From assembly GCA_001414345.1 (NCBI GenBank), contig LLCB01000112.1, forward strand, positions 104,017-168,016: a stretch of DNA of 64,000 nucleotides, given 5' to 3'. The notes below the pieces were generated by a model. That model did not search any database and was not told where the DNA came from. It was given only the letters and a program-made list of their open reading frames with translations. The stretch comes from Hymenoscyphus infarciens. Lineage: Eukaryota; Ascomycota; Leotiomycetes; Helotiales; Helotiaceae. Position 1 is the first letter of the stretch, and every line of letters starts with the position of its first letter. Both the position numbers and the translations under genes were made by a program. Shown piece by piece: positions 39,462-41,183 of this stretch.

Positions 39462-41183
39462 ATGAGGGTGCTCTTCCTCTTGTTTTCCATCATTATCGCA
39501 TTTCTCTCTGTCGCATTCAAGGCCAGCATTACCACGCAGTTCACAGCTCTCACCAGCCTGCTAAATCAAAACAACACCACTTACCTGCCACTTCGACTCC
39601 TCAATCGACTCAATCGAGATCCCAATTCCGCAAACATGACAGCTGCTCGCACAATCCGTAAAGCCTTTCTGGCAGTCGAACAAGCAGAGGGTGCTGGAGC
39701 TAGAGTTCGTCGCTCAATCGGAACATCACAACTACAGAACCTCGACCCCTTCCTCATGCTCGATCATTTCAATATACCACCTGGAGCAGGCTTCCCGGAT
39801 CACCCACATAGAGGACAAGAAACGATTACATATCTGTTGGAAGGAGCGGTCGACCACGAAGATTTCATGGGAAGTGCTGGCACAATTGAAGCTGGGGATC
39901 TACAATTCATGACGGCAGGTAGAGGCATAGTCCACGCAGAAATGCCAAGTCAAAACCAACGAGCGAACATTGGAATGCAGTTATGGGTCGACCTCGCGAA
40001 GATAGACAAGATGTGCGAACCAAGATACCGAGATTTGAAAGCCTCCGAAATACCACATGTTGATATCGACGGAGGAAAAGTCAAGGTCAAGGTCATCAGT
40101 GGTAAAAGCCATGGAATCGACAGTGTTCAGGAGTTGGCAAAGACTGAAGTATGGCTTCTCGACATCGACATAAAACCAGGCGGAAAGATCACACAAGAAC
40201 TACCAAAAACGTTCAACGCATTCGCATACACGCTCGGAGGAAGCACCCAGTTTGGTGAAGGAGATGACAAGACCCTTATTGGCCAATATCATAACGTTGT
40301 ATTTGAACGGGATGGAAATGAGGTCATTGCGGAAGTAGATGAGAGTGCCACCGAGAATGGTCATTTTAGTGAGTCCACACTTTTATTTTCTTCTAGCTTT
40401 CGCTCCAAAAAAGTTTCCCAAAGACCCGACCAACAGAAGTTTTTGTTCGGTTAGGTTAATGATGGGACTCGCTTGTCCCTAACCCTTCAGGTACTTCCAA
40501 CGAAGCACCTTTTAAAAACATGAACAACCTCAAAAATAATATGCCTTTTCAGGCCCTTTTTGGCGTTCGCTGGGACCATTGACCATTGCCCATCGCCCGG
40601 GATCAGCCGTGAGCCTCAGCGAACGACTGATCACGGGAGGTGCAAAAGAAAAAGAGAGAAAACAATTGCAAAAAGAGAAATTTGTTGCGTTCGCCGGGAA
40701 TCGAACCTACACGATGTTAGAGGGGAATTTCTGTGTGCTACAATGTTGAACAACTTACCCGGGGCCAATGCATATGTTCTTCAACAGTGGACTGTTGAAA
40801 TTGGCAAGCATCGATTTTACCACTAAACCACAAACGCTTATCTTGCTGATGGAATAAGACTATCTTATTTTACAATAGGTAGCTCATACCATTGTGGGGG
40901 AGATTTTGGTTTTAGCGAGATCAGCCCGGAGCTAGTACCTTTGTGGGGCGATCATAGAATTTTTCTTCCGCCAAACATGATATAAACATCTACTGACTTT
41001 GATTTCACTCTAGTTCTCGTAGCCGGTAAACCTCACAATCAAGCGGTTGTACAATGGGGACCTTTTGTGTTGTCAACAGAAAAAGACGTCAAGCAAGCCT
41101 TGAAAGACTACCGCTTTTCTCAGAACGGATTTGAGCGTGCAGCAGGATGGAGCAGCAAAATTGGAAAGACGATGGTTTCTTGA
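39462..41183 (+). CDS. Pirin-family protein (bicupin)
   Basis: Exon 1 (39462-40368) and exon 2 (41014-41183) join in phase through a 645-nt intron (GTGAGT donor, CTCTAG acceptor). The conserved N-terminal cupin carries the pirin metal-site motifs: HPHRG in FPDHPHRGQETITYLLEG, VDHED, and IVHAEMP (the His and Glu ligands). The C-terminal cupin ends with exon 2 (AGKPHNQAVVQWGPFVL, KDYRFSQNGFER). Pirins are iron-binding nuclear or cytoplasmic proteins, some with quercetinase activity. Two starts are possible. The outer ATG gives 358 residues with a hydrophobic N-terminus (VLFLLFSIIIAFLSVAF), a signal or anchor sequence unusual for pirins. The ATG at 39636 gives a standard 300-residue pirin starting MTAARTIRK. 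The intron is long for such a genome because it contains an antisense tRNA gene. Confidence 0.93.
40670..40674 (-). terminator. RNA polymerase III T-run terminator of the tRNA gene
   Basis: Five consecutive T on the minus strand, 12 nt past the tRNA 3' end, with further T-rich runs downstream. This is the expected Pol III stop signal. Confidence 0.75.
40686..40837 (-). tRNA. tRNA-Gly(GCC) with a canonical intron and a second, T-arm insertion
   Basis: On the minus strand the acceptor arms are GCGTTTG (40837-40831) and CGAACGC (40693-40687), with discriminator A at 40686. The D-arm (GTTT, AGTGGTA, AAAT) and anticodon stem GATGC/GCATT pair. The anticodon loop TTGCCAT carries GCC at 40805-40803. 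A 29-nt intron (40801-40773) after position 37, the normal place, contains a 9-bp hairpin. A 52-nt insertion (40758-40707) lies between T-stem positions 52 and 53. Removing both leaves T-arm CCGGG, TTCGATT, CCCGG and a 71-nt tRNA. The A box (TGGTTTAGTGG) and B box (GGTTCGATTCC, its first G coming from the insertion) are both present, and TTTTT follows 12 nt downstream. The gene sits antisense in the pirin intron. Confidence 0.88.
40707..40758 (-). other. 52-nt spliceosomal-type intron inside the tRNA gene
   Basis: The insertion begins GTAAGTTG, has CTCTAAC with its branch-like A about 11 nt before the end, and ends GTGTAG. These are the donor, branch and acceptor patterns of this genome's protein-gene introns (compare the 48-nt intron at 45114-45161 and the 48-nt intron at 49215-49262). 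Its length fits the usual fungal range. Exact excision restores a perfectly paired T-stem and the universal TTCGATT loop. That it is spliced by the spliceosome is inference; the motifs are seen directly. Confidence 0.72.

What the first reader, a model, noticed from the sequence alone, without database searches (positions are those of the whole stretch)
40686..40837. A tRNA-Gly gene that appears to contain a spliceosomal intron in its T-arm
Seen directly: after removing a normal 29-nt intron at 37/38, the tRNA still carries a 52-nt insertion between positions 52 and 53. The insertion starts GTAAGT, has CTAAC 11 nt or so from its end, and ends TAG, the donor/branch/acceptor set of this genome's mRNA introns, at a typical length. 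Precise removal yields a perfect T-stem, a TTCGATT loop and exactly 71 nt, the usual tRNA-Gly(GCC) length. The insertion's terminal G also rebuilds the B box (GGTTCGATTCC). Known precedents for spliceosomal introns in non-mRNA genes include U6 snRNA and ascomycete rRNA genes; I know of none in a nuclear tRNA gene. If real, one transcript would need both the tRNA endonuclease and the spliceosome.
Basis: partly seen in the sequence, partly recalled or inferred. Interest (0 to 1): 0.93.

Follow-up and report, generated by a model that had tools for sequence, protein, structure and literature searches.

The report
Spliceosomal introns inside fungal tRNA genes
In this fungus a number of tRNA genes appear to carry messenger-RNA-type introns besides the ordinary tRNA intron, so making those tRNAs would need the spliceosome, a route that I found described for no tRNA.

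Summary
The window's tRNA-Gly(GCC) (40837-40686, minus strand) has a 29-nt intron at 37/38 and a 52-nt insertion between positions 52 and 53. Six Gly(GCC) copies were found: three with the insertion, three without, the latter reading exactly as the predicted joined sequence. The tRNA parts are near-identical; the insertions have diverged but share GTAAG, CCCCTCTAAC and TAG. Like insertions interrupt other tRNA genes of this genome: Trp at 52/53, five Asp and four Ser genes at 60/61, Glu(TTC) at 62/63, Leu(CAG) inside the anticodon and probably before base 73, Thr(CGT) in the D-arm, and two less perfect Arg cases. Of 19 insertions in 18 loci, 17 have GT-AG ends, G5 and a branch motif; all 19 have 10-12 nt after the branch A, as do 10 of 13 reference mRNA-type introns. 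Removal restores tRNAs. Tests for bulge-helix-bulge and introner-like spread were negative. Five Asp genes whose internal B box the intron damages have a perfect one just downstream. RNA evidence and related species are lacking. Best reading: U2-type spliceosomal introns in nuclear tRNA genes of a helotialean fungus, which my ten literature searches found in no paper.

The parts
40802..40837 (-). tRNA-Gly(GCC) exon 1 (positions 1-37), with A box at 40830-40820
   Evidence: A-box motif recalled
40773..40801 (-). ordinary tRNA intron at 37/38, 29 nt, expected substrate of the Sen endonuclease
   Evidence: an intron of 28-29 nt stands here in all six Gly(GCC) copies found
40759..40772 (-). tRNA-Gly exon 2 (positions 38-52)
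40707..40758 (-). 52-nt spliceosomal-type (U2-type) intron between positions 52 and 53
   Evidence: GTAAGT donor 40758-40753, branch CTAAC 40720-40716, acceptor TAG 40709-40707; absent in paralogues L003, L004, L006
40716..40720 (-). branch-site-like CTAAC, 10 nt after the branch A
40686..40706 (-). tRNA-Gly exon 3 (positions 53-73)
40697..40707 (-). B box GGTTCGATTCC, rebuilt by the terminal G of the intron
   Evidence: G000:C16:144713-144723 minus
40670..40674 (-). T5 run 11 nt after the gene, likely Pol III terminator; no run of more than two T inside the insertion

Best explanation
The 52 nt are a U2-type spliceosomal intron in the T-arm of a Pol III-transcribed nuclear tRNA-Gly(GCC) gene, one of a set of such introns in tRNA genes of this helotialean fungus. 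Proposed order (inferred): TFIIIC binds the A box and the rebuilt B box, and Pol III reads through to a T-run. The spliceosome removes the GT-AG intron in the nucleus, which creates the T-arm. Only then can end processing, T-arm modification and export act, and the Sen endonuclease removes the 37/38 intron. Shown here: gene anatomy, paralogues with and without the insertion, conserved signals, genome-matched geometry, restored tRNAs. Inferred: transcription, spliceosomal catalysis, order, function of the product.
For: (1) Three Gly(GCC) copies with and three without the insertion; the latter read CCCCGG|GTTCGATTCC. (2) Insertion interiors of paralogues are little more alike than shuffled sequence (Gly 0.69 vs 0.56, three copies; Asp 0.61 vs 0.58, four of five copies; Ser 0.59 vs 0.56, three of four copies; sd 0.05-0.06), but donor, branch and acceptor are kept and the tRNA exons are near-identical. 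The C80 copy differs at positions 15 and 48 only, G15/C48 to A15/T48, a paired change in the Levitt pair (pair recalled). (3) 19 insertions in 18 loci covering Gly, Trp, Asp, Ser, Glu, Leu, Thr and Arg: 47-57 nt and one of 70; 12 GTAAGT, 2 GTAAGC, 2 GTATGT; 17 of 19 are GT-AG with G5 and branch motif; 10-12 nt after the branch A in 19 of 19. (4) Of 13 mRNA-type introns that I picked from the 93 candidate rows (CCT genes and window), 10 have the same 10-12 nt and 12 are 48-56 nt. (5) ARAGORN: no correct call in 19 uncut sequences (one misnamed), a tRNA call in 19 of 20 after excision; 18 of 18 at the exact site, 16-17 of 18 at shifts of 1-4 nt, 1-4 of 18 at shifts of 10-15 nt. (6) Bulge-helix-bulge pairing not above random. 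(7) Glu(TTC) and Asp copies without insertion have exactly the joined sequence. (8) Perfect B box GGTTCAATTCC 7 nt after all five interrupted Asp genes; best 3 mismatches within 100 nt of the one uninterrupted Asp gene.
Against: No RNA evidence of any kind, and no related species compared. Three uninterrupted Gly(GCC) genes could supply this tRNA. Two of 19 insertions are imperfect: Arg on C108 is GC-AG; Arg on C720 has a GTAAAT donor, leaves one base too many, gains no T-stem pairs (3 before and after) and has an acceptor stem of 3 of 7 pairs. One Asp copy (C422) looks decayed. Leu(CAG) at 34/35 ends in AAG and contains TTTT. The ARAGORN test fixes the site only to about 4 nt, and in 5 of the 19 calls after excision the anticodon named is not the isotype's usual one. 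The Leu 72/73 and Thr boundaries were recognised partly by the splice motifs, and four Asp copies were found with a pattern that holds the donor (16 hits, 9 in tRNA genes; reversed control 9 hits). The four Ser genes with a changed B box have no perfect external one.
Confidence: 0.91

Rival explanations
1. The T-arm insertions are non-canonical tRNA introns cut by the Sen endonuclease at bulge-helix-bulge-like structures, as in red algae.
For: Such ectopic introns exist in eukaryotes, including D- and T-arm positions (PMC4090602 section 5 read; PMC9602550 passages). Many of this genome's tRNA genes have 37/38 introns.
Against: Pairs of a bulge-helix-bulge at the boundaries are no more numerous than at random cut sites (observed 4-7 of 10, random mode 5). 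The rival does not predict GTAAGY, CTAAY at a fixed distance and AG, nor the mRNA-intron length.
Confidence: 0.04
2. The interrupted copies are silent pseudogenes that happen to carry intron-like inserts, and intact copies supply the tRNAs.
For: Three intact Gly(GCC), one intact Asp, one intact Glu(TTC) and one intact Ser(GCT) copy were found. PMC4090602 (section 5) says that D- or T-arm insertions in eukaryotic tRNA genes are mostly supposed to mark pseudogenes. One interrupted Asp copy is decayed.
Against: Exons are kept while insertion interiors are near chance level. Acceptor stems of interrupted Ser genes pair 7 of 7 (G-U counted) with bases changed on both sides, e.g. GGCCATA/TGTGGTC and GGCCAGG/CCTGGTC. 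Five of six Asp genes found, both Ser(AGA) genes found, and the only Trp and Leu(CAG) genes found are interrupted. Splice signals are kept.
Confidence: 0.05
3. The insertions are recently spread introner-like or other mobile elements with splice-like ends (not exclusive of the best explanation as to removal).
For: Several tRNA genes are hit at the same position (52/53 in Gly and Trp; 60/61 in Asp and Ser).
Against: Whole-gene searches with Gly, Leu, Ser and Trp genes found no copies of the insertions outside tRNA genes (the search skips very common words), and insertions of different tRNA families do not visibly resemble each other beyond the signals (by eye).
Confidence: 0.03

Closest known systems
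mRNA-type introns in U6 snRNA and U3 snoRNA genes of fungi
   Same: Spliceosomal introns in small structured RNAs; PMC5832005 (passages) names U3 and U6 as the only such RNAs known to be often interrupted by an intron, and has intron-bearing U3 in Leotiomycetes. U6 is a Pol III transcript; that paper's abstract (start seen) says the same of U3 (I recall Pol II for yeast U3).
   Different: Host is tRNA, several isoacceptors, combined with a Sen-type intron. The four U6 hits over the cut-off in this genome span 95-105 bases against a 105-position model, so no large insertion there.
Spliceosomal introns in rRNA genes of ascomycetes
   Same: Short mRNA-type introns in a non-coding RNA gene (PMC11889510, passages).
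   Different: Pol I transcript (recalled); rRNA genes of this genome could not be examined.
Ectopic tRNA introns of Cyanidioschyzon merolae and nucleomorphs
   Same: Extra introns in D and T arms besides 37/38; C. merolae tRNA-Ile(UAU) has them at 12/13, 37/38 and 53/54, and the outer ones are supposed to go first (PMC9602550, passages).
   Different: In C. merolae BHB motifs seem to be the determinants, for nucleomorphs the mechanism is unknown (PMC4090602 section 5); here no such motif, but splice signals.
Canonical nuclear tRNA introns (Sen complex)
   Same: The 29-nt 37/38 intron in the same gene.
   Different: The insertion lies in the T-arm; a 2026 review describes tRNA splicing as depending on protein enzymes instead of the spliceosome (PMC13149111, a cut passage).

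Membership tests
U2-type spliceosomal intron | GT-AG ends with a donor close to GTAAGT | tested here: met
   17 of 19 insertions GT-AG with G at position 5; exceptions Arg C108 (GC-AG) and Arg C720 (GTAAAT)
U2-type spliceosomal intron | branch motif CTRAY-like at the distance usual in this genome | tested here: met
   10-12 nt after branch A in 19 of 19 ([CT]TAA[CT]); 10 of 13 hand-picked reference introns
U2-type spliceosomal intron | length in the genome's intron range | tested here: met
   47-57 nt and one of 70; reference 48-56 and one of 80
U2-type spliceosomal intron | exact absence in uninterrupted homologues | tested here: met
   Gly, Asp, Glu paralogues; not testable for Trp, Leu, Thr
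U2-type spliceosomal intron | removal by the spliceosome through a lariat | not testable with these tools
   no RNA data
Canonical Sen-type tRNA intron | position 37/38 | tested here: not met
   insertion at 52/53; the separate 29-nt intron is at 37/38
Ectopic BHB tRNA intron | bulge-helix-bulge at the boundaries | tested here: not met
   pair counts not above random cut sites
Group I or II intron | catalytic core matching Rfam | tested here: not met
   no Rfam match over gathering score in the window; 52 nt is too short (recalled)
Introner-like element | many similar copies in the genome | tested here: not met
   no copies outside tRNA genes (DNA search skips very common words)

The most novel reading that the evidence does not exclude
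In this fungus the spliceosome is a general tRNA maturation machine: many nuclear tRNA genes, including the only Trp(CCA) and Leu(CAG) genes found and most Asp genes found, cannot give tRNA without it. In Leu(CAG) splicing would create the anticodon itself and the discriminator base A73, and promoters have adapted, with an external B box behind Asp genes whose internal B box the intron damaged.
Probability: 0.75. Interest if true: 0.96.

Novelty: new variant of a known kind. Interest (0 to 1): 0.94.

Why it matters
tRNA splicing and mRNA splicing are described as separate systems. A genome in which one transcript needs both would tie tRNA supply, and so translation, to spliceosome activity, would show that Pol III tRNA precursors can enter the spliceosome, and would give a natural test of how spliceosomal introns are gained in new kinds of gene. 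It also means that tRNA finders can miss such genes: ARAGORN called none of 19 correctly before excision, so similar cases in other fungi may lie unseen.

Tried and rejected
ARAGORN and Rfam at gathering score on the window gave nothing; the lax Rfam search found the tRNA. A 961-nt probe of 13 fungus-like tRNAs found nothing; an empty answer shows nothing there. Of the 41 new B-box places fetched, most are not tRNA genes by eye; L096, L114 and L115 look tRNA-like in part and were not counted. Seven of 16 hits of the 60/61 pattern (L139, L140, L145-L149) are not tRNA genes. A one-mismatch Trp-like site (C178) has no tRNA body by eye; the 25 two-mismatch sites were not examined (reversed control of that call: 15). 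U6 shows no large insertion. rRNA could not be examined. A model of nuclear tRNAs was built but could not be used on this genome. Counts are biased: after the first finds I searched for insertion-bearing genes, so 18 interrupted of 59 tRNA-like loci read off contig C340 (44, 15 from later calls; a few are decayed or doubtful) is no rate. One search left out Asp C422 and Ser C287. Ten literature searches showed no report of spliceosomal introns in tRNA genes among the papers listed; the library lacks most subscription journals and all preprints.

Full report
What is there. The window lies in an unnamed 65.6-Mb genome of 742 contigs. Its pirin-like protein has, among named records in the list shown, its nearest relatives in Helotiales such as Cudoniella acicularis (72% identity over 97%) and Amylocarpus encephaloides (80% over 74%), so it is most likely a helotialean ascomycete. 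On the minus strand at 40837-40686 lies a tRNA-Gly(GCC) gene with the ordinary intron at 37/38 (29 nt) and a 52-nt insertion between positions 52 and 53. The insertion starts GTAAGT, holds CTAAC with 10 nt after the branch A and ends TAG. Removal gives 71 nt with a full T-stem.

Paralogues. A search of the genome with the 152 nt found six copies: C16 (window), C303 and C80 with the insertion; C66, C448 and C27 without it, reading CCCCGG|GTTCGATTCC exactly as predicted. All six keep a 37/38 intron. Sequence likeness between copies reaches at most about 60 nt beyond the genes. The tRNA parts of C16, C303 and the three uninterrupted copies are the same; C80 differs at two bases, G15 to A and C48 to T, which form the Levitt pair (recalled), a paired change. 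The insertions agree at 37-41 of 52 places and share GTAAG, CCCCTCTAAC and TAG; their interiors agree at 0.69 against 0.56 (sd 0.06) for shuffled sequence. So they are related, and the tRNA and the splice signals have been held while the rest drifted.

A wider pattern. Reading tRNA genes from an Rfam search (63 hits, 19 of them on contig C340, probably mitochondrial; the other 44 all read), from a B-box pattern (59 hits against 22 for the reversed pattern; the 41 new places all fetched), from a Ser query and from a T-loop plus donor pattern (16 hits against 9 for the reversed pattern, 9 of the 16 in tRNA genes), I found the same kind of insertion in other tRNA genes: Trp(CCA) at 52/53; Asp(GTC) at 60/61 in five genes, one of them decayed; Ser(GCT) and Ser(AGA) at 60/61 in two genes each; Glu(TTC) at 62/63; Leu(CAG) at 34/35 and, probably, 72/73; Thr(CGT) at 12/13; Arg(TCT) in the D-loop with GC-AG ends; and a doubtful Arg(ACG). 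That is 19 insertions in 18 loci: donors 12 GTAAGT, 2 GTAAGC, 2 GTATGT, 1 GTTAGT, 1 GCTAGT, 1 GTAAAT; acceptors 11 TAG, 6 CAG, 2 AAG; lengths 47-57 and one of 70; 10-12 nt after the branch A in 19 of 19. In random segments of held sequence the full signature occurs in 205 of 2,000,000 trials; 17 of 19 insertions have it. Caution: the Thr and the second Leu insertion were recognised partly by these signals, and four Asp copies were found through the donor. The boundaries of the Gly, Asp and Glu insertions rest on uninterrupted copies, those of Trp and Ser on the cloverleaf.

Restored tRNAs. ARAGORN calls no tRNA correctly in 19 uncut sequences (one is misnamed Val). After excision it calls a tRNA in 19 of 20 sequences (19 single excisions and one double for Leu). 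The anticodon is the expected one in 14 of 20, the decayed Asp gives ATC, four name another anticodon (Trp, Glu, Leu twice), presumably through another placement of the 37/38 intron, and the second Leu insertion removed alone gives none. Shifting the excised stretch lowers the count from 18 of 18 to 16-17 at shifts of 1-4 nt and to 1-4 at shifts of 10-15, so this test fixes the site only to a few bases; the exact site rests on the stems and paralogues. Acceptor stems, whose two halves lie on either side of the insertion, pair 7 of 7 (G-U counted) in 13 of the 14 genes that I listed, with both sides changed between Ser copies. In Leu(CAG) removal at 34/35 gives CAG, and removal at 72/73 gives A73; the four other Leu genes read here end in A.

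Like mRNA introns. From 93 candidate rows found by open-frame continuity and a branch motif I picked 13 in CCT chaperonin genes (family search) and in the window. They are 48-56 nt (one 80), with 10-12 nt after the branch A in 10 of 13. As a branch motif was required, the distance and the length, not the motif, are the comparison. Bulge-helix-bulge pairing at the tRNA insertions is not above random, and no copies outside tRNA genes were found with four of the genes.

Promoters. At 52/53 the intron's last G rebuilds the B box GGTTCGA(A/T)TCC. At 60/61 in Asp the intron turns GGTTCGATTCC into GGTTCGATTGT; all five such Asp genes have a perfect GGTTCAATTCC 7 nt after the gene, before the T-run, and the one uninterrupted Asp gene has none within 100 nt (best 3 mismatches). 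This looks like a compensating external B box, as in yeast U6 (recalled). Against it: the Ser genes at 60/61 have none (best 2-4 mismatches), and the Asp copies share descent, though the introns of four of them have drifted to near chance level (0.61 vs 0.58).

Supply. Intact copies were found for Gly(GCC), Asp, Glu(TTC) and Ser(GCT). For Trp a DNA search found one gene, and its 16-nt anticodon-arm sequence occurs exactly once in the genome; one site with one mismatch is no tRNA by eye, and 25 sites with two mismatches were not examined. For Leu(CAG) two searches found one gene. The searches are weak for short exons and the genome may be incomplete, so 'only copy' means only copy found.

Mechanism. 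Most likely Pol III makes the precursor, the spliceosome removes the GT-AG intron, and the Sen complex the 37/38 intron. Spliceosome first is likely, since end processing, modification and export read the T-arm elbow (recalled), and in C. merolae too the D- and T-arm introns are supposed to go before the anticodon intron (PMC9602550, passages). The uninterrupted Gly copies still hold the 37/38 intron, as copies of a spliced intermediate would, though gene conversion explains this too.

Novelty. PMC5832005 (passages) names U3 and U6 as the only small structured RNAs known to be often interrupted by introns; PMC4090602 (section 5) supposes D- and T-arm insertions in eukaryotic tRNA genes to be rare and mostly in pseudogenes, with nucleomorphs and a red alga as exceptions; PMC13149111 (a cut passage) sets tRNA splicing apart from the spliceosome. 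My ten searches showed no report of spliceosomal introns in tRNA genes. The intron type is known and the host is new, hence new variant of a known kind. What is missing is RNA evidence and comparison with related species.

Noticed in passing
L094, L141-L144 (Asp genes), 7 nt after the gene end: Perfect B-box-like GGTTCAATTCC downstream of all five Asp genes interrupted at 60/61, absent within 100 nt behind the uninterrupted Asp gene (L105).
   Followed up: partly
L053/L084 (G000:C224:5724 onward): tRNA-Leu(CAG) with a GTAAGT..AAG insertion inside the anticodon and a second GTAAGT..TAG stretch right before base 73.
   Followed up: partly
L047/L083 (G000:C145:40351-40526): tRNA-like gene with a long insert after an odd anticodon loop (looks like TCA), no GTAAGT donor; identity unclear.
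   Followed up: no
L142 (G000:C422): Interrupted Asp copy with several G-to-A and C-to-T changes, like RIP decay.
   Followed up: no
L094 (G000:C41:66206-66216, minus strand): A second, degenerate Asp-like T-arm and 3' half downstream of the interrupted Asp gene.
   Followed up: no
L005:1730-1756: Degenerate second copy of the T-arm plus acceptor 3' half about 80 nt downstream of the C80 tRNA-Gly.
   Followed up: no
L137 (G000:C720): tRNA-Arg(ACG)-like gene with GTAAAT..AAAG insertion in the T-arm, one extra G on exact splicing and a poor acceptor stem; may be decaying.
   Followed up: partly
window 40590-40646: Inverted repeat (weak mir-582-like Rfam hit far below its cut-off) just downstream of the tRNA gene.
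   Followed up: no
G000 nuclear tRNA genes: Many nuclear tRNA genes read here carry 37/38 introns, including Gly, Thr, Lys, His, Gln, Asp and Glu (by eye).
   Followed up: no
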